A DNA stretch of 64,000 bases, from assembly GCF_000234665.1 (NCBI RefSeq), contig NC_018334.1, positions 806,001 to 870,000 of the forward strand. Reading direction: 5' to 3'. The stretch is from Leishmania mexicana MHOM/GT/2001/U1103 (Eukaryota; Euglenozoa; Kinetoplastea; Trypanosomatida; Trypanosomatidae). Of the stretch, positions 33,995 through 56,199 are shown in pieces; position 1 is the stretch's first letter, and every line of letters starts with the position of its first letter. The notes under the pieces are model-generated. The model did no database searches and was not told the origin of the DNA. It worked only from the letters and a program-made list of their open reading frames with translations. Both the position numbers and the translations under genes were made by a program.

Positions 33995-35824
33995 CTAGAT
34001 CGTAACGTAGATGGTGCCGCCGGTGCCGAAGACAATGCCCACAACACCGCAGATCAGCAGCAGGTACGTGTTCAGGTACGTGAACCATCCCACCTGCGCC
34101 ACCGTGAAGTTGCCCGAGTACATGACGAAGAGCGCGGGGAAGACAAAGGCGATGAAGCCGCCGCTGATCGCGCCGGCGAAGCCGAAGACGGTGTTGATGT
34201 TCGGGATGAACAGGCCACACAGCAGCGACGCGACGGAGAGCGCAAGCACGACGAGCAGGTGCTGCCAGAACGGGATGTTGTCCACGTACGTCGTGTCCTC
34301 GGCGGTCTCCTCCACGTCCTCACCCTCTTCGTAGCCCTCATCGACGGGTTGGGAGGGACTGTGGACCTTCGTTGTCCCCTCCGGGCCGTGGTCGCTGTCC
34401 ACCCCGTCCAGCTTGCCGGACTGGACAACGTCACTATCGGCCGCCGCCGCGGTCGGATTTGCCCCCTGCTGGACGGCGGCGTCGCCAGCGACGAAGCCGA
34501 GCTCCTCCGCGACAGCAGCCTCGGTGCGGTTGCGGTAGCGGTGCTGGAAGCCGATCAGGTAGTACAGGGAGTTGCGCGCTGCAATGGTGACTAACGCGTA
34601 GGCCACGCATAGCTTGATCATGACGGCAACGTAGGCGATCATGATGTCCGCCTCCTCGAGCGGGTTGAACATGAGCAGCAGCGACTTGCCCAGCAGCTTC
34701 TTGCTGCCAAAGTCGAAGTAGCCGAACACGGACACTAGCACGTACAGCGTGCCGCAGAGCATCATTCCAATGAACGCCGACATCGTGAAGGTCTTCGACG
34801 TGCGAATCTCGGGCCTCAAATCCCACAGAACCTCCTGCGCGTTGATTTGGCACACGTACGCGAAAACAAAGATGCCGACGGAGTGGATTACGGAGTTGCC
34901 GGTGCGAAAAAGAAAGACCGTGTTGTGCTCCAGCTTGTCATCGTCCACCTGGTTGCCGGACAGCTTCACGTGCTTCGACGTTTCCGCCAGTCCGTTGCGG
35001 CAGCTGTGTGCGACAACCACGAAGACGAAGTACACCATAAATGCCACCGCGATGGCGGAGGCGTAGCGCAGTGAGTCGATGTGCTTCGGAATAACCAGCG
35101 GCAGCATCACGAAGAGCCAAACGATGACGGTGAGCACGCGGTTGCCCTGCGTGGTGGCGAAGAACTGGATGGCTTTGTTGTCGGGGTGCTGCTCTGCGGC
35201 GCCGGTGAAGATAGCACCAAAACAGTTGCCCAGGCTGATGACGTAGGCGACGCAGCCGGAGAAGCCGTAGAACCATCTGACGAACGCGGCCCAGTATGAG
35301 AAGGCATATCTTCTCGCTGGGAAGAGCCACCGCGCCAAGCCCTCGAAGGTCTTGATGCGCGTATTCTCCGATGCGAGTGCCAGGATGTACATGGAGAACA
35401 CGGAGAAGTACGTGATGACGACGAGGAAGATCATGGCGGGGATGATGCCTGCTGAGTCGGTCGCCGCGGGCAGGCCAAGGATGCCGGCGCCGATGGAAGA
35501 GCTCGCCATGTTGAAGGCGCCGGAGAGAATGCCGCCGGGCGGCACGATCACGTACACCGCTTTGATGACGGCGTCGCGGATGCCCTGGAGCACACCAAGA
35601 CATCCGGTGCGGCGCGGCTGCGCGTTCGACTGGCACTGAGAGCGCTGCCCTGCACTCCGCGACGTCGCCGTCGGCTTGGCCTTGCGCACCGCACCTACGG
35701 CCATCTTTGTTCTGCTGGGAGAGTCCAGCGTGGCGCCGCCGCAGGTGCTGGCGTGGTCGAGGTACTCCTCGCGCTGTTGCCCTCGACAGGTGTGAGAGCG
35801 GCTATCGGCTGATCGGTTTGACAT
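33995..35824 (-). CDS. AAAP-family amino acid transporter 2
   Basis: A 609-aa paralogue of the transporter at 23941-25683; the two share nearly all sequence from NAQPRRTGCLGVLQG (about residue 66) to the final three codons. The same TM1 motif (SSIGAGILGLP) and acidic loop before the last three spans are present. Differences cluster: WFYGFSG against LFHGFSG, GNCFGAIF against GNCLGPIF, MIKLCVAYALVTI against MIKVCVSYALLSI, and CGTLYVLVSVFG against CTTLYMLASVFG, all in predicted spans. The N-terminus is unrelated to that of paralogue 1. The start at 35824 is favoured by a pyrimidine tract and AG only 22 nt upstream; a second Met (MAVGAVRKAKP, 35704) would give 569 aa. Likely a plasma-membrane amino acid importer with different substrate or affinity from its neighbour; substrate unknown. 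Confidence 0.88.
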   Translation of the reverse strand: MSNRSADSRSHTCRGQQREEYLDHASTCGGATLDSPSRTKMAVGAVRKAKPTATSRSAGQRSQCQSNAQPRRTGCLGVLQGIRDAVIKAVYVIVPPGGILSGAFNMASSSIGAGILGLPAATDSAGIIPAMIFLVVITYFSVFSMYILALASENTRIKTFEGLARWLFPARRYAFSYWAAFVRWFYGFSGCVAYVISLGNCFGAIFTGAAEQHPDNKAIQFFATTQGNRVLTVIVWLFVMLPLVIPKHIDSLRYASAIAVAFMVYFVFVVVAHSCRNGLAETSKHVKLSGNQVDDDKLEHNTVFLFRTGNSVIHSVGIFVFAYVCQINAQEVLWDLRPEIRTSKTFTMSAFIGMMLCGTLYVLVSVFGYFDFGSKKLLGKSLLLMFNPLEEADIMIAYVAVMIKLCVAYALVTIAARNSLYYLIGFQHRYRNRTEAAVAEELGFVAGDAAVQQGANPTAAAADSDVVQSGKLDGVDSDHGPEGTTKVHSPSQPVDEGYEEGEDVEETAEDTTYVDNIPFWQHLLVVLALSVASLLCGLFIPNINTVFGFAGAISGGFIAFVFPALFVMYSGNFTVAQVGWFTYLNTYLLLICGVVGIVFGTGGTIYVTI

Positions 35825-39936: not shown

Positions 39937-42900
39937 TCAATCACGCATCATCAGCGGAAAAGAGGCCGCCAATTCGTCCTCCTCCAACGTGAGCCCGGCC
40001 TGCAGCAGCATTTCCTTGCTCGCCTCCCGTACCTGCATCGCAGTCGGGCGTTCGGCAGGGTCCAGTGAGAGGCAACGAATGAGGGACTCAACGACACGGT
40101 TGCTGTATTTGCTGGCCACGCTTGCCCCTCTCAGCGGGTCCACGTTCACCACGACCCGGCCCTGCACCAGCGCACTGCTGAAGGTCGTCCCGCCAGCCTT
40201 CATCAGCTCCGCGAGCTCTGCCGGAGTCCCGAGCGGCTGCCCGTCATCGCCAGTGGCCCACTTCCACGCCGGCTGCTTTGTCAGTGCCTCGAGAGCGCCT
40301 AGGCCTATGCAGAACATGTCGCACTGTGGAGTAGGCAGCGCGCCGGTGGCCATCAGAGGGCTCATAAAACACGTTTGCCGCATGTGGAAGAGTTCGCATG
40401 CTGCTTCATTGTCGCCTGAGTGTCCAGTCAAGCGGCATTTTCCATCTGCACTCACGAGCACGTTGTCGAGGCGCACGCTGCCGTGGGCCACTCCCCGCTC
40501 GTGTAAATATGACAGAGCGGTGAGAATTTGAAGACCGAAGCGGTTGATGGTGACCGGCTTCACGTTTGGATAGCGGAAGATGAGTTCACGCAGCGTACCG
40601 CCAGGGCTGAACTCCCAGAGGAGCACGACGCCACCCTCTAGTGACTCGGAGAAGCCGAGGAAGGAGAGGAGGTTTGGATGGCGCAGCTGCTGGTGCCTTT
40701 TGATCAACCGCCGCACCGCAGCCGCCTGGCGTGAGGAGGGCCCACAGACGGGGGTGGCGCTGCGCAGTGCGTCCGACATCGGGCCCGGTGGTGCGTTTCT
40801 GATAGCCTTGGCTACCACAGGGTGCACCTCACGATATATCAAGTAGTTCACGGAGCACAGCGCTCCAGCAGAGCCGAGGGCCAGCACCCTCCTATGCCAC
40901 ATGAGCTCTGGGGTCAGCTCGCCGTTGATTGGACAACGTGCAATATGCCAGTGCAGCCCATGCTCGTCGCGCATCCATGAAGGCATCGATGGCACCACGC
41001 ACCGGAGGGTGCTGGTGCTCTCCTTCACTGCTAAAACATAGCGTTCCTGTACCCTCGGAAACCGCTGCGTCGATATCCGCGAAAAGCCACTGTGATTCGC
41101 CTCCCTCCCACGAACATTCTGAGGTATACGAACATCTTCCTCAGTCGGAGACAGCGCACCTGGGCAACGCCCTCCGGTTCCGTTACCCAGCGGTTTCGAG
41201 TCGCGTCGGACTGCGTCGATTCCTAGCGGACAGAAGCGCACCTTGCACAGCGGCTCCGTGATCCGCAGTCGCACGCGGCGCTCACACTCGCGCATCAGCC
41301 GCGCCGCCTGCACCGACACGGCACCACCCGTCACGGCGCTGGCCGCCGCCTCGCGGCGCATGGCCGCCGGCAGCAGCCCGGGCTCCAGGTCCGCGATCTC
41401 GGCGACGCCGCGGTAGGCGGCCAGCGCGCCAGCGTAGTCGCCGCGCAGCATGTGCTCGAAGCCGTCGCAGCAGCAGCGTGCGTACTGCTGCCACGCCGCG
41501 TCGCCGGCCACACGCCCGGGCAGAGCCTCGTACAGCACCACCACATCGCCGTCCAGCCCCGCGCGGCCCGTGCGCAGCACATCCACTGGGATCTGCCGCA
41601 CGCCAGCGTCCACATGGCCGCGGCCCCGGCCGCCGCTATCGTCGTCCGCGCGCAGCAGCGTCGCCGTCTCCTCCGTCATGGCCACGCGCACGCCGATGCG
41701 CTGCGGCACGCGGCCCAGATCGCGCTGCACGTCGCGGCCAAGCGCCACCTGCAGCGTCTGCTCGCTGCCGGCGGGGCGGTACTGCCCGCACGTGAACATG
41801 CTCGTGTCCAGCAGCGCGCGCACGTCGGGCATGGCCGACGCGCCGTCCGTTTGTGCGCTTTCGCCGCTGCCGCCCTGCGCGGCCGTCCAGCTCACCAGGT
41901 CCAGCGCGAAGGCCGCGGCGCTGCGTGCGTCCTGCGCCGCGCGGCGCCTCATCTCCTCCTGCCGCGTGGCGCGCGGTGGCCTCGGCTGCGGTGCCGACTG
42001 CGCAGCGGGGACACCATGCCTCGGAGCGGGTGCAGGGGGCGCCGCCGCCGCGCTAGCGTCTCCCGGCCCACGCGAAAGGTGCGCGCGCACCGCGCTGTTG
42101 AAGTGCAGCACGCATGCGTCGGGGCAGAGGCGGTGCAGCGTGCCGTGGTGCGTGTGGCACAGCTCGTACACGGCGGTGATGAATGCTGTCAGTGCGGCTG
42201 GTGTGGGAAAGGGGCCGCTGTTGGCGGTGTTGGCTGCCTGCGCCGTTTGCTCGGCCGCCGCGATGAGTCGCTGACCGCGAATCTGGCGAGATTCTTGTTC
42301 TTCGAGGCTTCGTGGTTGCAGCGACAAGAATTGGTCGGTGGTGTGAGATGCTGTAGCGCTTACTGAGAGGTATACGACAGTCGAGAGGTGCACGGACAGC
42401 GGAGTGCCTTTCAATTTCGGTGGCTTGCCGTTATTGAATAGGCATGAGAGGCGCCGCGTGGGGACATCGTTGTTTTGGTGGGCAGAAGCGCCCGGGACAC
42501 GCAGTCGCAGCCCCTCCGGGATGAAGGCGTCGACATTGCGCAGCTGCTGCATCGTCTTATTGTGTGCCTGAATGAGTGCATCGACCTCCGTGAAGCGGAC
42601 GAGATTGCTCTCTCTAGGATAATAGAGTTGGCGGTCACCGTGCTCGACGCTGGCAAGCATGCTCGCTCGCACGCCGTTGAGCGGATGCGAGATGGTGCGG
42701 TGGATGAGGCGCCAGAAAATGAGACTGAAGATGAGCACGGCGGCGACCATGATGCCGTTGCCCATATCGTGGATGAGCGTATGCGGCACGGTGATGTTCT
42801 CCTGCACGCTGGCGTAGACGAGAGGCAGGGAAAGGCCCTTGGACGTTGTGTAAGCCCACGCGGTGACCATCGCGGGTGCGCCGTTGTGCTGGAAGTCAAC

Positions 42901-44031
42901 AGTGCTCCGGCTGGCCTGGTTCTGCAGTGCCGCGAGATCGACGTGCTTGAGTGCGGCACGCATGAGCGGATCATGGACATCGCTGGCCTTGAGGTAGGTG
43001 ACACTGGTGTTGACCAGCGGCGCGTGGATGACGGAGTTGATCAAGTGCTGGCCCCAGTTGTTGGACATAATGGCGGGGTCGCCGTCGGTGAGGGTTTGGT
43101 TAACGAAGAGTGCGATACGGGCACCAATGTGGTGCATGCCGTCGGGCTCGCGTAGAAGCCTCGAACCGTTGATGCGCAGGAGAGCGTAGTCGGTGATGGG
43201 GGTGGTCAACGACATGGTGGGGCCCCCGTACACCATGCCCACTGGTGCGTTGAGCTCCATGAGGTGCGGAAGAATAGGGTTCACACGCCACGCGTTTCGA
43301 ATGTCGATGTCGGAGTTGCGGCCGGCCGCGAGCTCGTTGACGAGCGCGAAGATGGGGACGGCGTTCATGTTCTCGTCTATAGCGCTCGAGATGTTGCGTG
43401 CTTCAAGTGGCCACTCCATCGCCATGCGCAGCGGACGCTGGAAGCGATAGGTAGCCTTGTCGACGTAGTTGGTGGCGTTGACGGTGTGGTTGTAGGATAC
43501 ATACCCGGAGAGGCTGTCCGTCAACGCGCCGTCCGTGAGTCCGTGCATGCAGGTGACCGTCTCACGGAGCTCGAGAGAGACTAAGGATAATGCGGCGAGG
43601 AGCATGTCCTCGTCGTACCCCGCGAGGATGGAGCAGAGTGTTGCGAGAGTGTCTTCGGACTGCATTTGAAATAGGTAGCGCGCCTGCAGTAGGAGCATGT
43701 CGGCGGCCATGTTGTAGGCGGCACTTATCTGGTGATCCAGCCGCTTTCTGATGACGTCTGCGTGAAGGTTGTGCACGGTGCGCCACGATTCGAGCACCGC
43801 GGCGGAGACGATTGCCTGTGTGACGACGGAGCTGCAGGTACCGACAATGGCGAGGAGGGCGAAGAAGAGGATGGCCCAGAGGATGTCGACGCGGCACAAG
43901 AAGTCGAACCATGCGGCGCGGGGCCTATTCTGCTTGCGTACGTACAGCCGCGGAGGCGTCTCTGCTCGTGATTTTTCACTGCAAGAAGCCCGCATTTTGG
44001 TGTGCGGCGTGGCGGTGAGAGGGGGCTCCAT
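39937..44031 (-). CDS. Receptor-like transmembrane protein with degenerate cyclase-like and pseudokinase domains (receptor A)
   Basis: 1364 aa. A short basic N-terminus leads into membrane span 1 (about 50-72). A 350-residue extracellular domain with several N-x-S/T sites and a Cache-like size follows, then span 2 (about 422-442). After a linker helix, residues about 500-850 resemble a class III nucleotide cyclase domain: FIPEGLRL opens it, and one metal-type Asp survives in CPDACVLHF (Asp638). The first metal Asp is replaced (STVVYLSVS), and the usual Asn/Arg of the active site is not evident. Residues about 1050-1350 are a protein kinase fold: VVAKAI keeps Lys1075, but HRD is HGS (1183-1185) and DFG is GHS (Gly1203), so it should be a pseudokinase. 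Residues 597-930 are identical to the paralogue at 49058-53125. Likely role: a membrane sensor signalling by scaffolding or allostery; this is inference. Confidence 0.85.
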   Translation of the reverse strand: MEPPLTATPHTKMRASCSEKSRAETPPRLYVRKQNRPRAAWFDFLCRVDILWAILFFALLAIVGTCSSVVTQAIVSAAVLESWRTVHNLHADVIRKRLDHQISAAYNMAADMLLLQARYLFQMQSEDTLATLCSILAGYDEDMLLAALSLVSLELRETVTCMHGLTDGALTDSLSGYVSYNHTVNATNYVDKATYRFQRPLRMAMEWPLEARNISSAIDENMNAVPIFALVNELAAGRNSDIDIRNAWRVNPILPHLMELNAPVGMVYGGPTMSLTTPITDYALLRINGSRLLREPDGMHHIGARIALFVNQTLTDGDPAIMSNNWGQHLINSVIHAPLVNTSVTYLKASDVHDPLMRAALKHVDLAALQNQASRSTVDFQHNGAPAMVTAWAYTTSKGLSLPLVYASVQENITVPHTLIHDMGNGIMVAAVLIFSLIFWRLIHRTISHPLNGVRASMLASVEHGDRQLYYPRESNLVRFTEVDALIQAHNKTMQQLRNVDAFIPEGLRLRVPGASAHQNNDVPTRRLSCLFNNGKPPKLKGTPLSVHLSTVVYLSVSATASHTTDQFLSLQPRSLEEQESRQIRGQRLIAAAEQTAQAANTANSGPFPTPAALTAFITAVYELCHTHHGTLHRLCPDACVLHFNSAVRAHLSRGPGDASAAAAPPAPAPRHGVPAAQSAPQPRPPRATRQEEMRRRAAQDARSAAAFALDLVSWTAAQGGSGESAQTDGASAMPDVRALLDTSMFTCGQYRPAGSEQTLQVALGRDVQRDLGRVPQRIGVRVAMTEETATLLRADDDSGGRGRGHVDAGVRQIPVDVLRTGRAGLDGDVVVLYEALPGRVAGDAAWQQYARCCCDGFEHMLRGDYAGALAAYRGVAEIADLEPGLLPAAMRREAAASAVTGGAVSVQAARLMRECERRVRLRITEPLCKVRFCPLGIDAVRRDSKPLGNGTGGRCPGALSPTEEDVRIPQNVRGREANHSGFSRISTQRFPRVQERYVLAVKESTSTLRCVVPSMPSWMRDEHGLHWHIARCPINGELTPELMWHRRVLALGSAGALCSVNYLIYREVHPVVAKAIRNAPPGPMSDALRSATPVCGPSSRQAAAVRRLIKRHQQLRHPNLLSFLGFSESLEGGVVLLWEFSPGGTLRELIFRYPNVKPVTINRFGLQILTALSYLHERGVAHGSVRLDNVLVSADGKCRLTGHSGDNEAACELFHMRQTCFMSPLMATGALPTPQCDMFCIGLGALEALTKQPAWKWATGDDGQPLGTPAELAELMKAGGTTFSSALVQGRVVVNVDPLRGASVASKYSNRVVESLIRCLSLDPAERPTAMQVREASKEMLLQAGLTLEEDELAASFPLMMRD

Positions 44032-44056
44032 GGTGTACTGGATGAGCAGCAGAGGA

Positions 44057-44058
44057 CT
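44057..44058 (-). promoter_or_regulatory. Predicted spliced-leader acceptor AG for receptor A
   Basis: A moderately pyrimidine-rich stretch on the minus strand (about 44060-44100) precedes this AG, 26 nt before the ATG at 44031. Confidence 0.4.
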
Positions 44059-45589
44059 ATGGGAGTGAGGGATGGAAACGTCGCAAAGGGAGGAGTGACT
44101 GATGTTGCGGACGCATGCGCGGGATATAGGTGCCCACGCGTGAGTGCGACTATGCTATGTGGGCAAGGAGACTGCGTCCCCGATGAAGATGCCTCGTGCT
44201 GAGAAGCGAAGAGAGGGTCGAAAACGGGGGGAGGGAGGGAGGGAGAGGGGGAGGGCGTAAAGCGAGGTATCCCAGCTTGGAGGAGGGAAGGGTGGCGGAC
44301 GTCGTGGGACACACCGAGGCGATCAACAAGAGAGTAGAGAACGGCCCTTTTGTGCTACGTGACGGTGCGTGGAGCAGAACTACCCCACTCCGCACCTCAG
44401 GAGCGCCTCGTGAACCACTATGCTTACCAGGCGCCCGATTCCCCGAGTTGAGTGCTGCATGGGACTTGCTTTCTCATGCGTGGTATAGTGTAGATGGCGC
44501 TGTGCAAGGAACGCGAGCTCGCGACAGTGACGAACACTGCCACTGACCCATTCCATCAGAGGCCTAAGGAAGAAGTGGGGGGAGAGAGGGGCGGGAATGG
44601 GAATACATACACGCATACATACATACGCCTGTATATATATATATTTATTTATATAGGATGTGGATGTACGCAGCATCAGCGGAGGCGTGCATGCCGCAAG
44701 CAGAATTACATAAAGCACCGCAGCCGAGGCCTCAAGAGCAGAACACCGCAGCCACGCCCCGCCTCCTAACACACAGCGGCGATGAGGGGCGTTTTCTGCT
44801 TCTTTTGATGACACTGCCTCAGCGCGGGCGTGTGTGTGTATGTGCCTATGTGGATGTGGGGAGGGCGCTGGTGGAACAGAGAGAGAGAGGTAGAAGGAAG
44901 AAAAAAGGTGCCGGAAAACAGTCCACCTTGTGGAGTAGACACCGCCGCACACATCGACAGGGAGAACGGCAAAAGAGGACGCTACCAGCCAACCGTCCAC
45001 CCAAAAAACCCAATGACGACTACACGGGCATGCGGGCCCACTCGTGCGATGGGGGCTGAGTAGAGGCAGCTCAAGGGACTAGGTGAGCCGGGAGATGAGA
45101 AGAGGGGGAGGGGGAGGGAGGGAGGAGAGCGACAGAGAAGGTGACGCAGAATACCGTTCCACGACTCAATCGCAAAACCCAGAACGCCCTCGACGCGCCA
45201 TGTGACCCAATCAACGATATGATCCTAATAAGCACCTCGCAACGGTGATGGACTGCAACCGCGTATATAGAAAAAGAGCAGTGTAGGCGCGTGCATCTGT
45301 GCTCATGTGTCTGTGGGCATCGGTATACGACGAAGAGGGGGAGAAGGTGCAGTGGCCTGTTCGATGCACTGGTGACGAGCACACTCCATTCCTTATATCA
45401 TCGGTGTTGGTGGCCGTGGAGAGGGATGCTGGGGGGGGGGGAGCACTCGGGCAGGTTTTCTGATACAACCGCGATAGAAAAAAAACGAAGACCCAAGCAA
45501 CACATGTAGTGAATACATATATTTGTATAACGTGTCATTCCACCTCGAGCAAGCCAGAAAAGGTATACGCCTTCAACCACAGCGCACCT

Positions 45590-46260
45590 ACCTCTGTCGC
45601 ACTGTGGCTACATCCACATCGTCTCGGATGAGCAGTCCTGCCGTCGAGTCGAGCCATGCGCCTAACGGGTTCTTCTCATCTTTCCTCGTCCCTTCCGCGG
45701 ATACGTGCTGCGCGATCGGCGTCGCAGGGGCCTGGCTGGACTGCATACCTTGATCCGAGTCGATCCCCTCCGGGGTCCTGCTCGAGGCCGGAGGCGATGG
45801 CGCTTGTGGTGCGGGTAATAAGGAGGTGGCCCAGGTGCATGCTGGATGAGGCCAACGAGGAAGTTGCCCAGCCTCAGGTAAAGGGCCCGCTGAGACCCTC
45901 TGCCCACCCCGCCTGTATGCCACGCTTCCCCTTGAGTGGCCTCAAGACGCGGCATTCCTCACTGGGGTGCAGAGACTCTTCACATGGGGGTCTGGAGGAC
46001 TCCGATGGTGCAACTCGGGGTGTCCCTGTCACGCTTCCGGCATCTGTGCTTCATCAGCCCACCCGGTCAGATGTAGGAGATGCCGCACATTCCGCACACA
46101 TGTAGCTTGGGGAGTTGATTAATATGAATCTCTTCGCGCCTTGTTCGTCCATCACTCATGTTCCACTCACATCTGCATGCTTCACCTGGATGCGGTACAC
46201 CATGCCAGCTGTGCTTGACAGTCCTTGCGCCCAGTGCTCTCATTATTGCATCTTGAGGCC
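45590..46260 (-). pseudogene. Decayed coding trace with a zinc-finger-like motif (possible non-LTR retroposon relic)
   Basis: On the minus strand a frame is readable from about 46245 down to 46070 and contains HVCGMCGISYI, a stop, then PGGLMKHRCRKRD. This is a C2H2-type layout (C-x2-C ... H-x-C) interrupted by one stop. Further down, shorter frames continue with frame changes to about 45595. A C-terminal zinc finger of this kind is known in ingi/DIRE and SLACS-type trypanosomatid retroposons. No reverse transcriptase motif is visible, so a decayed host gene is equally possible. Confidence 0.35.
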
Positions 46261-47735
46261 TGCGTCAGGGCGGCGTTGGTGTCGGGGGAGGGGAGTGCTC
46301 TTCGTCTTCATCGCCCTTTTTCCGGTGGTGCTACCGGGAGGAGAAGGAGGATGGGGGGGGGCGTGCCTGCATGGCTTGCCCCGCATGTGCCGCGACACAC
46401 GGAAAGGCAAAGGGGGAAGCATAGACCCGAACGGTAAAGAAAAAGACAGACCCGGCGCCTTGGCCGCTTCTCTTAGGGCTGCGGCGAAATCGCGGTTGCC
46501 GCGAAGGCGCGCGCGTCGACGGGCCGAGTAGCAGCCCGGTGAACAGAGCAGAAGCGCACAACGGCAGCAGGGGGGAGGGACAAAGCGCATGAGAAGTCCA
46601 TTCCCTTTCCGTTCACGAGGAGAGGGAGATGTGCATGTGGGCAGACGGGATGGAGAAGACACACCTGTGCTTCAGCGGCCCATGACGAGCACGCAGCGAG
46701 CTGCGTAAGGTGAAGACGTGCCAGCTGGCCTCTACACTCGTGGCAGGGACGAAATGCGTGTGCCTGTGCGGGAATGGATCAAGGCCGCTGCAAAACGAGA
46801 CGGCCGCAGACATAGTACATAAGCGTCGCGCTCGTATAGAAGGAGGAGCAGAGCGCCCCCCCCCCCTCCCCCCCCTCTCCAAAATTAAAAAAAAAAGGAG
46901 ACGGAACCGATCAGACCTTCACTCGAGTGACCGTGCAGGCATACGTTTATGGGTCTACCAGTGGGTTAGCGGCGGGACGGCGGGTGCGGAGGAAAAGGGG
47001 GTGGGGGTGGGTGGGCGCAGTTTGACACCTTAACAGGGCAAACCGTGGAGAAGGGCAAAGACGGGGTACACACACTCTTTCAATTTTTCTTTTTCTCGAG
47101 TGAGGGTCAGCACAGAGAAATGACCAGCGAAGAAGAGTTCGATGTGCGGATGATGATGATGAGGGAGGAGGGTGGTGGGCCTTTACGTGTCGTGAGTGGT
47201 TGCCAACGGTGCATGCCTCGGTCGGTCAGGAGAAGGAGAAGGAGTGTGTGTGTGAGAGAGAGGGGGGGGTGAAATAATAAAAATAAATAAATATGTGGAC
47301 ACACCATGAAGAGATCGGGAGGCGGAATGCAGAGGAATAGAATGCAGTGGGGCAGCCACCTATGGTGAAGAACCAGAAGAAAAGGAAAAGGGGTGCACGC
47401 GTAAAAGGAGGGGGAGGAGGGGAGGGGTGAGGGGTGAGGCGGGGGGCGGAGTTATAAACAGCGGTTGCACCTCCGGAATGCTGCACGGCTTGTGGAGAGG
47501 GGTTTGCGGATGGTATAGACGAAACCAAGGTTTGGGGGGGGGGGGAGGTGCCGTCGCGTCCCGTGGGGGGGGGGGACACACTGCCACCATGTCTCCGGAA
47601 GCTATTCAAAGGCGGAGGCACACAGTAGAACAAGTGCAGAGGACGAGGTCGCAAGTCGGAGACAGATGAATCGAAACGACAACGCTAACACAACAGCGCA
47701 AACAACAACAACCGCGTAGAGAGAGGGGGTGGGGG

Positions 47736-47835
47736 NNNNNNNNNNNNNNNNNNNNNNNNNNNNNNNNNNNNNNNNNNNNNNNNNNNNNNNNNNNNNNNNN
47801 NNNNNNNNNNNNNNNNNNNNNNNNNNNNNNNNNNN
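47736..47835. other. Assembly gap (100 N)
   Basis: One hundred N residues, entered from a G-rich low-complexity run. Confidence 0.99.
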
Positions 47836-49057
47836 CGCCTATATATTTATATTGGAGACGAGAAGGGAAGAAGGAAGGCATGCCTGCCGACGGCCGACAT
47901 GAGCTGAGCAGCTAGCACACTCGAACACAGATGAAAAGAGAACCACACGTGGTGTGCACGAGGAGAGAGAGAGGTGCGTAAGAGGCATGCATCCGGACCA
48001 CCATCCGACGTTGCCGGAACGTCTCTGTGTGAGTGCACGTGCGTGAAAGGGAGGATGCACGATGCCGACCAAAGGTGTGTATGTGCGCCACGCCACAGAG
48101 AGGTACAACAGAGGTGTCCTACACATCAGAGAATGTGGCACCAAACGGGGGTGAAGACGCAAGCAAGCAATCGAACAACAACCAAAGGAAAAAATGAGCA
48201 AAGGTAGCATGAGAGTAGCAAAGACAGACAAGTTCGCAGAAAGGCACGAGAGAAGACACAGAGGGGGAAGGGGGGGGGGCAGCTCAGCCTTCCTGCGCGC
48301 TTACATCGATGTATGTTGGTGTGACCGAGTCCAATCAAATCCAGAGATGTGCCGGGAAGAAACGGAGGAAGGGGGTTGAAAGACCAAAGGATACGCAAGG
48401 CGTTGCTCCAGCGGGTAGCGGCCAAGCCGAGCTGCCGAGATCAACGAGGAGCGCCAGAGAGAGGGGGGAGGAACTAGGACGGAGAAAACGTTCTCCGGGA
48501 TGTAATGTATACAGCTGCCTTTCCTTCTCAGCTTCCTCGTCTCCACCCCCATTCTCTGCGCATCTGACAACACCCGCTCCCCACCCCCCGCTGCTGCGCC
48601 GCTGTCTCGTACGTTTCGGGCAGAAAAAGCAGCGACAACACGCAGTGAAAAAAAAACGTGTTGAGCCGCAAGAGACCACTCATCACACAGCATCAAAAAA
48701 CCGCGACAAGCACGCGGCTACGCAGACGGCTAGGCATGCGCCAGTTTAGGCATCAGCGCGGGCGTAGGGGGAGGGGGGCTGAACAGGGAAGACGAAGCCA
48801 GAGAAAAGAGTAAGGGCGATGCATCATTGTTCGGGGGGCTCTCTCCCCGCTAAACAGCACGTGGAAGGCAGCGACACAGAACAGTGCTCGTAGTATCCCC
48901 GTTCGCCACCCTGATCATCAGAGACTCAAAAAAACGCACGCACACACCCACACACACCGACACAGACTGAACGGGAACCGAGCCAGTTGACCTTGGACGC
49001 TGCTCGCCAAGGGATGCGAGGGAGAAGAGCGAAAAAAAAAAGATCCCCCAAAGCTCC

Positions 49058-52000
49058 TCAGACCTCGTCCTCTTCGCAGGCCAGCCCACCTTCACTAAGA
49101 AGTATCTTGACGATATTTCGCACCTCCACCGCCGTCGGCCGCTCGGACGGGGTGTGGGAGACGCAGCTGCGCAGTGTGCTCCGTGCAAGCTCATTGTATT
49201 TCTCGGCAAACATCGGTGTGTCGAACGCTTCCGCGTTCGCCACCACGCGTCCCTGCACCACCGCCTCACAGAACGCGTGTCCGCCGTTCTTCATGAGGTC
49301 GGGCAACTCCAGGGTAGCGCCGTATGGCTCTCCATCTTCCTTCGTTGCCCATCTCCAGCAGGGCTGCCGCGTGAGCCCTTCTAGAGCCCCGAGACCGTAG
49401 CAGAACACATCGCAGGCGGGCGTTGGCAGCGCACCGGTGGCCATCAGGGGGCTTATGTAGTGGGTCTGAGGAAGCGCGAAGGGAAGCCGCTCATGCGTGT
49501 ACAGCCCCACTAAGCGGCAGCTTCCGTCCGAGTTGACCATGACAGTGTCAAGGTTAAGGTTTCCGTGAGCGATGTTGTTCTCGTGAAGGAAAGACAGCGC
49601 AGACAAGGCGTGCAGCCCAAACCGTATTGTTGTTATCGCCGGCAGCCGCCCGTACCGATTCAGCAGTTCGCGCAGCGTGCCACCGGGGCTGAACTCCCAG
49701 ATCAGTACCACCCCGCCCTCAAGCGAGTGCGAGTAGCCGATGAGGGAGACAATGTTGGGATGGCGGAGGTGCTGGTGCATGAGAAGGGTGCCTTTCATGA
49801 AGGCCTCCTGTTCTGAGGAGGGACCACAGACAGGCGTGGCGCTGCGCAGTGCGTCCGACATCGGGCCCGGTGGTGCATCACGAATGGATTTCGCCACGAC
49901 CGGATGAAGATCGCGGAATGTAGAAAAGCTCACGGATGCGATGAAGCCGGCGGAGCCGAGGGCCATCTGCATGCCATTCCAGACTGGGGTCGCTTCATCG
50001 TTGTCATGGCTGCGTGAGAGATGCCAGCACAACCCCATATGATCACGAATCCACCTGGGCGCCGAGGGCAGCACGCACCGGAGGGTAACCTGCCTCTCCT
50101 GAAAGTGCACGACGCAACGGTAGCGAACCTCTGGATACTTCACGAGTTCTCCGAAGCTCTGCGCGCTCCTCCTAGAGTTCCGCCTCGGTCGCCCATCCGC
50201 GATGCTTTTATCCACCTCCACTACTGCCTCCTGTGCGTACTTGGGATGACTGCCTTCGGCCACATCTTCAAGGGCCCACTTACTTAACACCTGATCGACA
50301 CCGAGGAGGCTGGAGATGGCATTGCACAGCGGCTCCGTGATCCGCAGTCGCACGCGGCGCTCACACTCGCGCATCAGCCGCGCCGCCTGCACCGACACGG
50401 CACCACCCGTCACGGCGCTGGCCGCCGCCTCGCGGCGCATGGCCGCCGGCAGCAGCCCGGGCTCCAGGTCCGCGATCTCGGCGACGCCGCGGTAGGCGGC
50501 CAGCGCGCCAGCGTAGTCGCCGCGCAGCATGTGCTCGAAGCCGTCGCAGCAGCAGCGTGCGTACTGCTGCCACGCCGCGTCGCCGGCCACACGCCCGGGC
50601 AGAGCCTCGTACAGCACCACCACATCGCCGTCCAGCCCCGCGCGGCCCGTGCGCAGCACATCCACTGGGATCTGCCGCACGCCAGCGTCCACATGGCCGC
50701 GGCCCCGGCCGCCGCTATCGTCGTCCGCGCGCAGCAGCGTCGCCGTCTCCTCCGTCATGGCCACGCGCACGCCGATGCGCTGCGGCACGCGGCCCAGATC
50801 ACGCTGCACGTCGCGGCCAAGCGCCACCTGCAGCGTCTGCTCGCTGCCGGCGGGGCGGTACTGCCCGCACGTGAACATGCTCGTGTCCAGCAGCGCGCGC
50901 ACGTCGGGCATGGCCGACGCGCCGTCCGTTTGTGCGCTTTCGCCGCTGCCGCCCTGCGCGGCCGTCCAGCTCACCAGGTCCAGCGCGAAGGCCGCGGCGC
51001 TGCGTGCGTCCTGCGCCGCGCGGCGCCTCATCTCCTCCTGCCGCGTGGCGCGCGGTGGCCTCGGCTGCGGTGCCGACTGCGCAGCGGGGACACCATGCCT
51101 CGGAGCGGGTGCAGGGGGCGCCGCCGCCGCGCTAGCGTCTCCCGGCCCACGCGAAAGGTGCGCGCGCACCGCGCTGTTGAAGTGCAGCACGCATGCGTCG
51201 GGGCAGAGGCGGTGCAGCGTGCCGTGGTGCGTGTGGCACAGCTCGTACACGGCGGTGATGAATGCTGTCAGTGCGGCTGGTGTGGGAAAGGGGCCGCTGT
51301 TGGCGGTGTTGGCTGCCTGCGCTGCGTGCCGGACAACGCTTACCAAGCGCTGGCCGCGCAGGGGTTTTTGCTCGCCGTGTTCGGCTAGGATGGGGGGTGG
51401 TGCCGCGGTCAGCGACAGGACTGCTTGACTACCGGAGGGTGCCGAAGGGGGTTGAATGATGAGAAACACGGCTGTGGAGAGGTGCGTCGCAAGACAGCGA
51501 CTTCCGAGTTTCGTCCCTTTTCGCCCCTGTGAGGTGCCCATGGAGGACGCTATGTTGGATACGCTGCTGGTCGTGCGCTGCGCTCTGCCCTCGGCACTGA
51601 GTTCATCGAGCACGAAGGCGTCGATCTCTCGCAGCTGCTGCATCGCGGCATTGTGTGCCTTGATGAGCGCGTGCACCTCTGTCAATTGGAGCAGTGTGCT
51701 GCTCGTTGTGGTGTAGAAGAGCGCACGCCGACCAGCACTCATACTCGCCAGCATGAGCGCCGTTATGCGCCGCAGCGGCTGCGAGATCAGGCATCGCGCA
51801 CTGTTAAAGGAAGCTCCAGTGAGCAAGAGGATCACGGCAGCTAAGATGGCGTCGAATATGCGCATGAGGAGCAGGTATGGTGTCGTGATGGCGGCGTGGC
51901 TGCTGGCGACCACCAGCGGCACAACGAGACCCTGCGCGGTGGTGTACGCGTACGCTGTGACGAAAGCGGCGGCGCCGGCGTACTCGAAGTTGACGGAGCG

Positions 52001-53125
52001 CCTGTAGCCCTCCTCCTGCAGTGCTGCGAGGTCGACGTGCTTGAGTGCGGCACGCATGAGCGGGTCACTAATATTGCTCGCCTTAAGGTACGTAACTGGC
52101 ACTGCCGTGAAAATGGAGTAGATGCTGTCGTTACTGACGGAGGGTTGACCCCAGCTGTTGGAGAGCACGAGGGGATCGTCGTCAGCGAGGCTCTGGTTGA
52201 TGAAGGCGGCCATGGCGAGCCCCGGCGCCTCCACAAAGTCGTAGTCCAGCAGCATGCGAGAGCCGTCGAGTAGCACCTGCGTGAAGTCGGTGTAGCTCAT
52301 GCCGCTGATATCCGTGCGACCACGGGCGAGGTAGCCGACCGGCAGGATGTAGCAGATGATGTGCGGCATGATTTCGGGGAGGATCCAGTGGTGGCGCGAG
52401 TCAACGCTGCCGACACTGCCATCGAGGTAGGCAGGCAGCAGCTCAAGGATGGGCGCGCCGCTGTACGTTGTCGTCGTGGCAGCGGAGATGTTACGCGCCG
52501 ACTCCGGCCACTCCGCCACCATCTGCAGTGGTTGCACGAAGTCGTACGTCCCGTTATCGATGAGGTAGGTGCCGTTGATCATGTTGTTGTACGAGACGTA
52601 GCCGGTAAGGGTGCGCATGGAGTCCATGGTGGGGATGCCATGGATACAGCTTATGGTGCTCTCGGTCTCTAGAGACACCAACGAGAGTGCACGAAAGCGC
52701 GTCAGCTTGTCATAGTTGTCGAGCGAGGAGCAGAGGTTCTCCATGAGGTCGTGGTCGGTGTAGCTGCGCTCGCCCAGTATATTGAGTGCCATGAAGCCGT
52801 TGGCGATGTTGTGCACGCTTATGGTGCTGATGGAGATGCGCTCCGTGATGTAGTACACACGCGTGTTGTGCACGGTGCGCCACGAGGTGACCAGCGTGCG
52901 CGTGAGGTAGACCTGCGACACGACGACGACGGGCACGGCGACGCAGAGGAGTATGAGGAGGTAGGCGATAGACAAGGAGACGTCGACGCGCAGGAGGAAA
53001 CCCTTCAACACAGCAAGACGGCAGCGCATCCTCGTTTTGGCAGGGCGGCCGGGTGAAGGCATGCCACGGTGGAGCTGCTTCGGCGCCGCCACACCGCTGG
53101 ACGGACGAGAGCTCTGCAGGTGCAT
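49058..53125 (-). CDS. Receptor-like transmembrane protein with degenerate cyclase-like and pseudokinase domains (receptor B)
   Basis: 1355 aa, paralogue of 39937-44031 with the same plan. Span 1 lies at about 50-72 (LSIAYLLILLCVAVPVVVVS), an extracellular domain at about 75-420, and span 2 at about 422-440. A cyclase-like region follows at about 505-855 with the surviving Asp643 in CPDACVLHF, but the first metal Asp is lost (STAVFLIIQ). The C-terminal kinase fold is at about 1055-1340. VVAKSI keeps Lys1079, HRD is HGN (1187-1189), the catalytic-loop Asn is Thr1194, and DFG is GLY (Gly1207). Loss of the catalytic Asp, the loop Asn and the DFG Asp makes phosphotransfer very unlikely. Residues 602-935 match receptor A exactly while the extracellular and kinase parts differ widely. 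Short leader: a likely splice acceptor lies 24 nt upstream of the ATG. Ligand and output unknown. Confidence 0.85.
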   Translation of the reverse strand: MHLQSSRPSSGVAAPKQLHRGMPSPGRPAKTRMRCRLAVLKGFLLRVDVSLSIAYLLILLCVAVPVVVVSQVYLTRTLVTSWRTVHNTRVYYITERISISTISVHNIANGFMALNILGERSYTDHDLMENLCSSLDNYDKLTRFRALSLVSLETESTISCIHGIPTMDSMRTLTGYVSYNNMINGTYLIDNGTYDFVQPLQMVAEWPESARNISAATTTTYSGAPILELLPAYLDGSVGSVDSRHHWILPEIMPHIICYILPVGYLARGRTDISGMSYTDFTQVLLDGSRMLLDYDFVEAPGLAMAAFINQSLADDDPLVLSNSWGQPSVSNDSIYSIFTAVPVTYLKASNISDPLMRAALKHVDLAALQEEGYRRSVNFEYAGAAAFVTAYAYTTAQGLVVPLVVASSHAAITTPYLLLMRIFDAILAAVILLLTGASFNSARCLISQPLRRITALMLASMSAGRRALFYTTTSSTLLQLTEVHALIKAHNAAMQQLREIDAFVLDELSAEGRAQRTTSSVSNIASSMGTSQGRKGTKLGSRCLATHLSTAVFLIIQPPSAPSGSQAVLSLTAAPPPILAEHGEQKPLRGQRLVSVVRHAAQAANTANSGPFPTPAALTAFITAVYELCHTHHGTLHRLCPDACVLHFNSAVRAHLSRGPGDASAAAAPPAPAPRHGVPAAQSAPQPRPPRATRQEEMRRRAAQDARSAAAFALDLVSWTAAQGGSGESAQTDGASAMPDVRALLDTSMFTCGQYRPAGSEQTLQVALGRDVQRDLGRVPQRIGVRVAMTEETATLLRADDDSGGRGRGHVDAGVRQIPVDVLRTGRAGLDGDVVVLYEALPGRVAGDAAWQQYARCCCDGFEHMLRGDYAGALAAYRGVAEIADLEPGLLPAAMRREAAASAVTGGAVSVQAARLMRECERRVRLRITEPLCNAISSLLGVDQVLSKWALEDVAEGSHPKYAQEAVVEVDKSIADGRPRRNSRRSAQSFGELVKYPEVRYRCVVHFQERQVTLRCVLPSAPRWIRDHMGLCWHLSRSHDNDEATPVWNGMQMALGSAGFIASVSFSTFRDLHPVVAKSIRDAPPGPMSDALRSATPVCGPSSEQEAFMKGTLLMHQHLRHPNIVSLIGYSHSLEGGVVLIWEFSPGGTLRELLNRYGRLPAITTIRFGLHALSALSFLHENNIAHGNLNLDTVMVNSDGSCRLVGLYTHERLPFALPQTHYISPLMATGALPTPACDVFCYGLGALEGLTRQPCWRWATKEDGEPYGATLELPDLMKNGGHAFCEAVVQGRVVANAEAFDTPMFAEKYNELARSTLRSCVSHTPSERPTAVEVRNIVKILLSEGGLACEEDEV

Positions 53126-53150: not shown

Positions 53151-55499
53151 GGGAGGGGGGGGGGTCACTTACCTGCCTTGGCGGGCAATGCACAGGATGT
53201 GGTATGTGCACCTGACGGCGGAGGGGTAATTATCGTCTTGAAACAGGAGGAGTGGGATGGATATGGATGAAAGGAGAGTGTCGCTGTGGAGCTCAGCGAA
53301 GGATCGGAGATAATGTGTGTGTGTGCGTGGGGAACAAAACTAACAAAAAGCAGGATGGATGCGCGTATATGTGGCGCGTGCGCCAATGGGGCTGCAGCGG
53401 CTCCTTCGTATATATATATATATGTTTTCCGTTGAGTGAGTCTGCAGGAGTGCACGCTTACGTGCGTCGGCCAGCGGTGATGACGCTCACAGGAGAGAAC
53501 AAACAACAAGAGACGTAAGAGACAGGTGAGGTATGACAGCAGTGCCCCCTCCCCCCGCTGCGAAGCCAACAGCAGGCGAGGGGGAGGGCTTGAAAAGCGG
53601 CAATGAAGGAGGGGGGGGGTAGTGCGCCTGCTTAACGAACGGCGACAGGGTAGCCGCAGTATTGCTCTACCGGTCGTTTGGCGAGAGTGCTGTGTTGGTT
53701 GGCTGGCCACACAGAGAGAGGTTGCACTGGCACGGCAACACCTTCCGTTCTCTTGTAGACGAAAAACGGAAAAGGGGCTTCACGGATTCTCAGCGCCAAG
53801 AGCGCCGACTGCTAGACGGACTTCACCACAGTTGTGACGGTTTCCTGCGTGCCTGACGCGCTGAGAGGCGACAACAGCAAAAAAACGTGACCGAGGTGTG
53901 TTGCCGCGGCTACGGGAGAAGGGCGCCGAAAGACACTTTGTTCATCGAGGCCTCGAATGGCACAGCGTCGCTCCTATACGGGGAATTCGTCACGGGGGAA
54001 GGAGGCTCAGAGCTCTTCGCGCAACTTCATTTCTCTTCCCTGCCAGGAGACGACTCTCAGGGCATGGACAGAGCCGGGTGCAAGAGCATGAGAAATGCGG
54101 GGAAGGAGGCAAACACAGGCGCGAGAAAATAGCGTCACTGCAGCCCCGCAGCCTCCAAAGGACTTGCCCCGTCCCCCTCTAACCTTCCCACACGTGCGTG
54201 TCCGCGAGAGACCCTGGGAGGGCGACGGGGGATCGCGACTCTTCCCCTGGGTCGTGCAGATCGTCGACTGACGCCCCACACGATGAAGAGCCGCGGCGAA
54301 GAGCGCACACAAGAAAGTAGGAAACAATAAAAAGGCAAAGGCATGAGGGGAGGAGGGGGGAGACGTCGTCGACAGCGCCCCCCCCCCCCACACACAGTGA
54401 GATGTGAAGGCGAGAAGAGGGCGTCCAGCAGATGAAGAGGATGAGCGAGGCGGAGCGTTCCACGCGAATAATTATAAAAGAAAAAAAGAACGACAAGCAG
54501 CCGTCGTGCATGTGAGGGTGGCGGGGATGGGAGAGGGTGCTAGGAAAAAACCTGAGTAGAAGGCCGGTGAGCGCGTAGGGCTCGAAGAGGCGGAGGCGAC
54601 ATGGATTCGTGTTGCGGAGGCGAATGAAGGATCGCTGAGGGCGAGTTCGAGTGGGGTGGGAGGGGGGGGGAAGGTGCTTTGAACAACATAGACAGGGGAA
54701 TACGTAGCGAGCGCGAAGCGGCCACCACGAGAATAGGGGAGAAGGAAACGCAAGACGACACCCTCCCCACGGGCTTGCAGACGCAGAAGAAGAAGGCTGG
54801 GCGCGAAGGGGCGTGAGACGAATAAACGAACGGGCGCGCACACAGCCCCAAGCAGACAAGGACGTATTGAGAGAAAACAAACAAACAAACGCATCCGTCA
54901 AAACGCAAGGCTGGATGACCGTAATATGGACGCCGTCATCGACGACCACCCCACACGGACAGTCGCGTCGTGCATGCGAGCCACACACAAACATGCGCAC
55001 GCCTACCGAGTTGCATAACGAACAAACGACAGTGGGACGAGCACGCAGGATGGAAACAGAAAGGACACGCACGGCTGACGGCGAGAGAAGAGTGGAGAGG
55101 CGAAAGACGCACTCGGCTGCGGCGGCTCAGGATGAGCAGGTGACCAGGCGCTGCGATCCGTTCGCGCCGTTGACGGCCACAAGACAAAACGGTGCGCTTG
55201 AACAAACAAACGCACGCGCCGCCCATGGAGAGGCCCATTGCACGCACCTCCTCCCCTCCCCTCCCCGAAAGGCAGGAGATGAAAGATGCGCAGCCGTCGT
55301 CCTTTACTTCTTCATTGTCATATGTACTGCACAGTGTCATTGACATTCCGTCAGACGATGGAATTCCTCGTCCGCTGGTGCACCGCCTGCACTAGCGGCG
55401 ATACGCTCAATCCCCGTACCTACTGCATCGTGGGAACGTTGCAGCGGATCAGGCAACAACAAGCCACGCCCCATTGCCGCTGTGGGCACGCTATAGAAA

Positions 55500-56035
55500 T
55501 GTAAGAACCCGGGTGTACCCAACATATCCCGCGCTCACCACCACGCGGCGCTGAGATCCCTCCAACCTGCCTTCATTAGCACCGCCAGCTCCGAAGCAGT
55601 ACTCAGAGGTCGACCGTCCGTCGCAGTTGCCCACCTCTAACATAGTTAGGGAGCGGCAGCTTCAAGGGCCATGGGCCCACAAACGAACATACCGAGTGCC
55701 GGAGTTGGCGATGCCCTTGTTGCCCTCAGATGACTGATGTAACCCGTTCGCGAGAGCTAGAACAGCTCTCGTGCCAATGGCCGGTTGGCAGATCGGCCTG
55801 CCAGACGACAGGGGCCGTCGGCACTTACCAGAACGTTACCGAAGCACGAAAAGCTCTCACGTGCCAGGCACGCCACCGTCGACAAACCAAGGAGCTCGAC
55901 GCGATCTGCGCCACCGAACCGCACCACAAGTGCAGTACTTTACCGCTCCATTACGATTCGCTCATCTGCCGTAGCGCTCCACCAGGGGCTGAGCACGGAA
56001 ACGGGCACCACCTCGCCTGACAGAGATTCGACATC
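55500..56035 (-). pseudogene. Decayed C-terminal kinase-domain relic of a third receptor-like paralogue
   Basis: This stretch aligns in order with the part of receptor A from about 40140 to 40650 (pseudokinase C-lobe to hinge). Landmarks on the plus strand: TGCCTTCATTAGCACCGCCA (55568-55587) against the matching piece near 40194; a GTCGACCGTCC-type block; CCGAGTGCCGGAGTTGGCGATG against the GTAGGCAGC block near 40330; and CACCAGGGGCTGAGCAC (55979-55995) against the CCAGGGCTGAAC block near 40602. Stops and frame changes break every frame. No extracellular or cyclase-like part was found, so only the 3' end of the old gene remains. Receptors A and B differ from it about equally by eye. Confidence 0.6.
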
Positions 56036-56199
56036 AGCACCAAAAAAGGGCGGCGGCGGGAGCATGCTTGGGTGTCGTAGCCGCACTTCATCCGCTTGAT
56101 ATGACTGTGAATGGCCGCGTCTGGTGTGGTTGTTTCGATTACCGGGTAAATGCTGCGGTGCAGACGGTTTAGTTCACAGATGAGGTCGTACCAGCGGAG

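What the first reader, a model, noticed from the sequence alone, without database searches (positions are those of the whole stretch)
39937..53125. Tandem receptor-like proteins with a sensor domain, a cyclase-like domain and a kinase fold, both enzyme domains apparently dead
Both proteins read span - extracellular domain - span - class III cyclase-like region - kinase fold. The kinase folds lack the HRD Asp (HGS and HGN) and the DFG Asp (Gly1203, Gly1207) but keep the VAK Lys. The cyclase-like regions keep one metal-type Asp (638 and 643) and lose the other. The domain order is the reverse of receptor guanylyl cyclases, where a kinase-like domain precedes the cyclase. HGN in the catalytic loop is also seen in the JAK pseudokinase domain. 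A doubly pseudo-enzymatic receptor would be an unusual sensor design in a parasite with few classical receptors. I cannot tell whether the family has been described already.
Basis: partly seen in the sequence, partly recalled or inferred. Interest (0 to 1): 0.85.

Follow-up and report, generated by a model that had tools for sequence, protein, structure and literature searches.

The report
Dead RDK1-type sensor kinases, recombining pair
Two neighbouring Leishmania genes encode membrane sensors built like a known parasite differentiation kinase but with both enzyme parts apparently dead, and recombination keeps rewriting a shared middle piece while their sensor and output ends diverge.

The parts
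39937..44031 (-). Gene A, 1364 aa: span - dCache-like - span - HAMP-like - cyclase-like - helical (TPR-like) - pseudokinase
49058..53125 (-). Gene B, 1355 aa, same architecture; 91% identical to an L. donovani protein (P0002)
43843..43899 (-). A: first predicted membrane span, residues 45-63
   Evidence: hydropathy
42751..43827 (-). A: double-Cache-like ectodomain, residues about 69-427
42700..42756 (-). A: second predicted span, residues 426-444
42517..42699 (-). A: HAMP-like helical linker, residues about 445-505 (pattern recalled; no Pfam HAMP match)
   Evidence: secondary structure; one search gave no Pfam match
41509..42402 (-). A: class III cyclase-like domain, residues about 544-841; second metal-type Asp638 kept, first lost
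41347..41499 (-). A: helical pair after the cyclase-like fold (TPR-like by eye), residues about 845-895
   Evidence: no Pfam match; aligned to the same stretch in P0028
39991..40965 (-). A: pseudokinase domain, residues about 1023-1347
   Evidence: bounds carried over from B
40477..40485 (-). A: HGS in place of HRD
40417..40425 (-). A: Gly-His-Ser in place of DFG (residues 1203-1205)
52919..52975 (-). B: first predicted span, residues 51-69
51848..52924 (-). B: ectodomain, residues about 68-426 (dCache fold inferred from A by alignment)
51818..51874 (-). B: second predicted span, residues 418-436
50588..51493 (-). B: cyclase-like domain, residues about 545-846; Asp643 kept
49559..49567 (-). 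B: HGN in place of HRD
49499..49507 (-). B: Gly-Leu-Tyr in place of DFG (residues 1207-1209)
41243..42243 (-). A copy of the homogenised 1001-bp block
   Evidence: 1 difference in 1001; adjoining 60 bp 24 and 27 of 60 identical
50322..51322 (-). B copy of the homogenised 1001-bp block
55364..56083 (-). Decayed fragment of a further family member (kinase C-lobe), with in-frame stops

Best explanation
A and B are membrane sensor proteins of the RDK1 type (dCache-like ectodomain between two spans, HAMP-like linker, cyclase-like domain, helical linker, C-terminal kinase fold) whose kinase domain has lost its catalytic residues. With a paralogue on contig C8 they form a pseudokinase branch whose named records here are all Leishmania, Novymonas, Lotmaria or Leptomonas. 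Proposed mechanism: (i) the dCache domain binds a small ligand outside the cell or in an organelle lumen (inferred from fold); (ii) the second span and HAMP-like helices pass a shift to the cyclase-like domain, which makes no cyclic nucleotide but dimerises and couples sensor to output (inferred; each of the seven L. mexicana proteins read lacks at least one metal Asp, by eye); (iii) the pseudokinase acts by contact, as an allosteric partner or scaffold for a catalytically intact family member such as RDK1 or for a downstream MAP-kinase-type kinase (inferred by analogy with RAF/KSR and JAK JH2, recalled). The middle block is kept near-identical in the tandem genes by repeated gene conversion (shown by sequence), which would keep the coupling interface interchangeable while sensors and outputs diverge (inferred).
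For: Identity: profile comparison without kinase domains gives hhalign probability 98.2 (E 4.7e-14) to the RDK1 family and 98.7 (E 2e-16) to the C32 family; 12 of 12 reversed-alignment controls gave 0.1-0.2. A member of the RDK1-family set is named 'Repressor of differentiation kinase 1' (P0044). Folds. Dead kinase: HRD Asp 0 of 26, DFG Asp 0 of 26, against 13 of 13 in the RDK1 family, 10 of 11 in the C32 family (the other is gapped there), and both further kinases C20 and C21. Constraint: the pseudokinase domain is 94.7% (B, L. mexicana-L. donovani) and 94.2% (A, L. mexicana-L. infantum) identical, against 77% for the low-confidence linker and 88-91% for the ectodomain. Conversion: 319 of 320 identical degenerate residues inside the block use the same codon (133 expected from codon usage), 206 of 420 outside; block identity of A/B pairs is 98% (L. 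mexicana), 98% (L. tarentolae), 96% (L. donovani B against L. infantum A) and 98% (L. braziliensis), against 34-39% in the ectodomain part and 48-51% in the kinase part.
Against: No interaction, ligand, localisation or expression evidence for A or B was found. The HAMP and TPR labels have no Pfam match. Sequence profiles gave no match between the cyclase-like region and genuine Leishmania cyclases. The A/B profile does not match C20 or C21 directly (0.7, 0.5). Models are of moderate quality (mean pLDDT 67.1 and 72.0, pTM 0.46). The T. brucei RDK1 sequence itself was not aligned here; the link goes through a source's own name and papers. Jensen 2021 puts tagged RDK1 in the ER, another paper at the cell membrane, so 'outside the cell' is open.
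Confidence: 0.6

Rival explanations
1. A and B are decoys: they bind the same ligand as an active sensor kinase, or pair with it non-productively, and so damp its signal; the kinase fold is a passive leftover.
For: Colinear architecture with kinase-intact relatives; catalytic Asps absent.
Against: The pseudokinase domain is at least as conserved as the ectodomain in six of six orthologue pairs, which a passive leftover would not be; ectodomains of A, B and the C8 paralogue are only 35-38% identical, so one shared ligand is not likely.
Confidence: 0.15
2. The genes are drifting towards loss.
For: A decayed relative lies at 55364-56083 with stops; L. shawi P0011 is frame-disturbed in the block. 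The dead kinase domain is less conserved than that of RDK1 (91-95% against 97.4%, L. mexicana-L. donovani/infantum).
Against: 24 of 26 members are 1253-1431 residues long; pseudokinase identity between species is 84-95% and is higher than that of the linker in six of six pairs.
Confidence: 0.05
3. The kinase fold is still active by an unusual route (as recalled for WNK, CASK or SelO).
For: The catalytic-loop Asn is kept in 13 of 26 and a Lys in a VxAK-like context in 19 of 26; two members carry Glu at the HRD Asp column.
Against: HRD Asp and DFG Asp are absent in 26 of 26, the DFG Gly is absent in 26 of 26, and the two glycine-loop columns are Gly in only 5 and 2 of 26 in that alignment; the Lys is lost in 7 of 26.
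Confidence: 0.08
4. The near-identical block is an assembly artefact rather than gene conversion.
For: Identical tandem stretches collapse easily; mosaics P0007 and P0011 change over inside the block, and P0011 is frame-disturbed there.
Against: The block is homogenised, with a sequence of its own each time, in records of L. mexicana, L. tarentolae, the L. donovani complex and L. braziliensis; the L. mexicana copies differ at one base and have unlike flanks; mosaic P0006 is joined upstream of the block.
Confidence: 0.06
5. Strong purifying selection, not conversion, keeps the block alike.
For: The block covers a folded domain.
Against: Codons are identical at 319 of 320 sites against 133 expected; the block tree groups by species or complex while both ends group by paralogue; the C8 paralogue is only 55-56% identical to A and B in the block.
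Confidence: 0.02

Closest known systems
RDK1 (repressor of differentiation kinase 1; T. brucei Tb927.11.14070; L. mexicana family member on contig C31)
   Same: Two spans, sensor ectodomain, cyclase-like domain, C-terminal kinase fold in the same order (PMC8519429 section 15). Linked in print to differentiation (PMC3894213, passages); the L. mexicana null loses fitness in macrophages and mice (PMC7902614, passages).
   Different: RDK1 keeps VAIK, HRD and DFG residues (13 of 13) and, by eye, the first cyclase metal Asp but not the second; A/B lack HRD and DFG Asps and keep the second metal Asp. RDK1 is not part of this tandem, conversion-prone pair.
Second kinase-intact family on contig C32 (P0028, named 'putative protein kinase')
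   Same: Two spans, colinear ectodomain, cyclase-like and helical linker; like A/B it keeps the second metal-type Asp and lacks the first (by eye).
   Different: Kinase residues intact; 1980 aa, with the kinase domain matched in two stretches.
Receptor guanylyl cyclases (metazoan)
   Same: Sensor, span, kinase-like and cyclase folds in one chain (recalled).
   Different: Kinase-like domain precedes the cyclase and the cyclase is active (recalled); here the order is reversed and a metal Asp is missing. Convergent at most.
JAK JH2 and KSR/RAF pseudokinases
   Same: Non-catalytic kinase fold acting by contact is the proposed working principle (recalled); the top structural matches of the B kinase fold are RAF kinases.
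   Different: No evidence of common descent beyond the kinase fold; no adjoining active kinase domain as in JAKs.
LmjF.08.0660-named family ('protein kinase')
   Same: The third full paralogue in L. mexicana (P0016, contig C8) falls in this group by the name given to its L. donovani relative P0015; it also lacks HRD and DFG Asps.
   Different: Not homogenised with A/B: block 55-56% identical.

Membership tests
RDK1-type sensor kinases | Two membrane spans flanking a bacterial-type sensor ectodomain | tested here: met
   ecto-only profile 94.6 to the RDK1 family, 94.8 to the C32 family, reversed 0.1
RDK1-type sensor kinases | Cyclase-like domain between second span and kinase | tested here: met
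RDK1-type sensor kinases | Catalytically competent C-terminal protein kinase | tested here: not met
   HRD Asp 0 of 26, DFG Asp 0 of 26. Hence filed as a pseudokinase branch, not as RDK1 itself
Pseudokinases | Kinase fold with loss of VAIK Lys, HRD Asp or DFG Asp | tested here: met
   the Lys is ambiguous
Class III nucleotide cyclases (enzymes) | Both metal-binding Asps and the transition-state Asn/Arg | tested here: not met
   No Asp in nine first-strand columns in 26 of 26; second Asp 24 of 26, 1 Glu, 1 gap; GRDVQRDLG in place of the recalled GxxVNxAxR (by eye)
dCache chemosensory domains | Double-Cache fold flanked by spans | tested here: met
dCache chemosensory domains | A known ligand-binding motif | not tested
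   A D-x-R-x-x-W stretch (D 20, R 20, W 23 of 23 members counted) recalls dCache amino-acid motifs from memory only
HAMP and TPR domains | Match to the Pfam model | tested here: inconclusive
   no HAMP or TPR match on fragments of A, B, RDK1 or C32; helical pattern only
Receptor guanylyl cyclases | Kinase-like domain followed by active cyclase | tested here: not met
   order reversed, first metal Asp absent

The most novel reading that the evidence does not exclude
The tandem pair is a receptor-shuffling locus. Recurrent conversion keeps a common coupling module interchangeable, and recombination in or near it trades sensor ends against pseudokinase output ends, making new sensor-output pairs: A-sensor/B-output in L. 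braziliensis, B-sensor/A-output in L. shawi and L. sp. Namibia, the two reciprocal types that an unequal crossover would give. This would be a case, outside antigenic variation, in which recombination in a parasite diversifies the wiring of signal reception.
Probability: 0.25. Interest if true: 0.75.

Novelty: new variant of a known kind. Interest (0 to 1): 0.55.

Why it matters
Trypanosomatids have few membrane kinases (PMC8519429 counts ten in T. brucei) and I know of no ligand for RDK1. A dead branch of that kind of protein, conserved in Leishmania and relatives, gives a direct test of whether these kinases work in pairs. A homogenised middle module with diverging ends, and natural mosaics, would show which part couples sensor to output. 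It also warns that 'protein kinase' annotations of these genes are misleading.

Tried and rejected
Pfam detection of a cyclase, HAMP, TPR or Cache domain: none found in the ten whole proteins or nine fragments scanned. Profile comparison of the cyclase-like region with genuine Leishmania cyclases (seven PF00211 loci): no match (0.1-0.3; reversed controls 0.2-0.6), so sequence profiles alone do not show cyclase homology; the cyclase profile was shallow (3 of 7 sequences kept by hhalign).

The next-nearest kinases of the genome were checked as further members. C20 (1498 aa, spans 150-168 and 530-548) matches the C32 profile at 96.1, the RDK1 profile at 78.2 and the A/B profile at 0.7; C21 (1692 aa, spans near 291-309 and 619-637) at 55.7, 5.7 and 0.5; loci on C2, C6, C5 and C17 gave nothing above 0.6. 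LmxM.08.0530, an 'endomembrane' kinase that could not be deleted (PMC7902614, PMC11684651; passages), was considered as the C8 paralogue, but its identity could not be established. Searches with guessed gene numbers found 3 papers for six numbers and none for six others; the systematic names of A and B were not found. Supplements of the kinome papers were not available, so whether A and B are in their lists is unknown. Other paper searches: (no paper). In one search none of the 15 papers listed of 12,636 held 'dCache'; papers with dCache and only one of the two genus names could be hidden below. None of the titles and abstract openings listed describes this branch, but only seven papers were opened and only as passages or sections, so absence from print is not established.

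Species-level dN/dS could not be computed: only proteins of other species were available. Foldseek of the B model listed only kinases in the 50 rows shown, so the cyclase and sensor folds were tested on the A model.
Full report
What is there. Two intact ORFs lie on the minus strand at 39937-44031 (A, 1364 aa) and 49058-53125 (B, 1355 aa). The window is G000:C30:806001-870000 of a 32.03-Mb, 545-contig genome. Contig lengths of C8 (1,671,993), C31 (1,524,016) and C32 (1,407,111) equal those given for proteins named Leishmania mexicana MHOM/GT/2001/U1103 (P0016; P0040; P0028), so I take this to be that genome. It holds a third full-length relative on C8 and a decayed fragment at window 55364-56083.

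Catalytic residues. In 26 family members, A and B included, the HRD Asp and the DFG Asp are absent in 26 of 26. In kinase-intact relatives they are present: 13 of 13 in the RDK1 family, 10 of 11 in the C32 family (the other is gapped), and in C20 and C21. A motif-by-eye alignment would still allow it, so this is unresolved but doubtful. The second cyclase metal-type Asp is Asp in 24 of 26, with 1 Glu and 1 gap; no Asp occurs in nine columns of the first strand in 26 of 26. In kinase-intact relatives at least one metal-type Asp is also missing: by eye, RDK1 keeps the first and lacks the second, C32 and C21 the reverse, C20 lacks both (sequences; second-Asp columns aligned). So the cyclase fold looks non-catalytic in all seven L. 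mexicana proteins read, including those whose kinase looks active.

Relatives. With kinase domains removed, the A/B-family profile matches the RDK1 family (98.2, E 4.7e-14) and the C32 family (98.7, E 2e-16), and those match each other (99.8); each part (ectodomain, cytosolic part, cyclase-to-helical part) matches on its own at 94-99, while 12 of 12 reversed controls score 0.1-0.2. One member of the RDK1-family set is named 'Repressor of differentiation kinase 1' by its source (P0044). C20 and C21 also have two spans; their sequences match the C32 profile at 96.1 and 55.7 but the A/B profile only at 0.7 and 0.5. So L. mexicana has five proteins firmly of this build (A, B, C8, RDK1, C32), a sixth probable (C20) and a seventh possible (C21); four of the seven have intact kinase residues and three do not. 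The double-Cache fold was modelled for A only.

Published background. Jensen et al. 2021 (PMC8519429; abstract, passages, sections 12, 15, 22 and 25) report by HHpred that T. brucei RDK1 has a TlpQ-like sensor region, a span, a cyclase-like region and a kinase, an organisation conserved in other trypanosomatids and Bodo saltans, and that three other T. brucei membrane kinases have cyclase-like domains. PMC3894213 (passages) describes RDK1 as a membrane-associated repressor of differentiation. PMC7902614 (passages) reports 11 L. mexicana pseudokinases lacking all three catalytic residues, 40 kinases lacking one or two, and an rdk1 null that loses fitness in macrophages and mice. Parsons et al. 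2005 (PMC1266030; passages) predicted about 8% of the kinases inactive and noted a T. cruzi kinase with HAMP and TPR motifs. I did not see A or B named in the passages read. PMC7618733, PMC11684651 and PMC9539739 were seen as passages too.

The homogenised block. A 1001-bp stretch (41243-42243 and 50322-51322) differs at one base; the adjoining 60 bp match at 24 and 27 of 60. Inside, 319 of 320 identical degenerate residues use the same codon against 133 expected from codon usage; outside, 206 of 420. A self-comparison of 36000-60000 found no intergenic match between the two genes' surroundings, so this is not a recent whole-gene duplication. In 17 of the 26 members, ectodomain and kinase trees group by paralogue (A with A, B with B), while the block tree groups L. 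mexicana A with B (support 0.992), the two L. tarentolae copies (1.000), the L. braziliensis copies (1.000, with L. shawi) and puts L. donovani B beside L. infantum A. Thirty-residue windows show the block between residues 601 and 930 in L. mexicana, the L. donovani complex, L. tarentolae and L. braziliensis alike. Repeated gene conversion in separate lineages is the simplest reading. The block covers most of the cyclase-like domain and the helical linker, but not its first strand.

Mosaics. L. braziliensis P0007 has an A-type sensor end (60% to L. mexicana A and 35% to B; 99% to the overlapping part of P0013) and a B-type kinase end (100% to P0004); it changes over inside the block. L. shawi P0011 is B-type up to residue 600 (99-100% to P0004), disturbed over 601-900, and A-type from 931 (97-100% to P0013). 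L. sp. Namibia P0006 has a B-type sensor end (82% to L. enriettii P0005) and an A-type kinase end (74-75% to L. mexicana and L. infantum A, 52-53% to B). In P0006 the B-type ectodomain, span and HAMP-like helix run straight into an A-type stretch that holds a further span-like stretch and a second HAMP-like helix, upstream of the block, in keeping with its 1431 residues (read by eye). A collapse at the identical block does not explain P0006; assembly error is open for all three. A-sensor/B-output and B-sensor/A-output are the two reciprocal types that unequal recombination between neighbours would give.

Is it functional? Between L. mexicana and L. donovani or L. infantum (B, A and C8 pairs) the pseudokinase domain is 91-95% identical, the ectodomain 88-91%, the linker 77-85%; the kinase domain of RDK1 is 97.4% identical. 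The dead kinase domain is thus constrained, though less than an active one. In the ectodomain two Cys, two Asp and a Trp are invariant in 23 of 23 members counted.

Mechanism, likelihoods. Non-catalytic sensor protein of RDK1 build: from sequence and models, about 0.9. Repeated conversion of the block: about 0.95. Partner or scaffold for active kinases: inferred, about 0.5. Ligand decoy: about 0.15. Receptor shuffling as an adaptive system: about 0.25.

Verdict. The architecture is known from RDK1; the dead branch is a variant of it. The recombination pattern is the part that would surprise a specialist.

Noticed in passing
window 23941-26271 and 33995-35824 (-): Two amino-acid transporter genes (Aa_trans, 143.6 and 141.6 bits) lie downstream on the same strand as the sensor pair; with a dCache ectodomain a shared amino-acid theme is tempting but untested.
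   Followed up: no
window 55364-56083 (-): Decayed kinase C-lobe of a further family member upstream of B, so the array once had at least three copies.
   Followed up: partly
L014 (C20) and L015 (C21): Two further two-span kinases with intact kinase motifs, related to the C32 family by profile (96.1 and 55.7); possible counterparts of the cyclase-bearing membrane kinases of T. brucei in PMC8519429 (not tested).
   Followed up: partly
protein P0006 (L. sp. Namibia record): Carries, by eye, an extra membrane-span-like stretch and a second HAMP-like helix at the join of B-type and A-type parts: a natural three-span sensor if the record is right.
   Followed up: partly
window 432-1652 (-) and 18212-19591 (-): A nucleosome assembly protein and a TLC-domain protein.
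   Followed up: no
G000 C17:41318-82107: Five clustered class III cyclase genes with TDIE and GDS motifs, a contrast set for the dead cyclase folds.
   Followed up: partly
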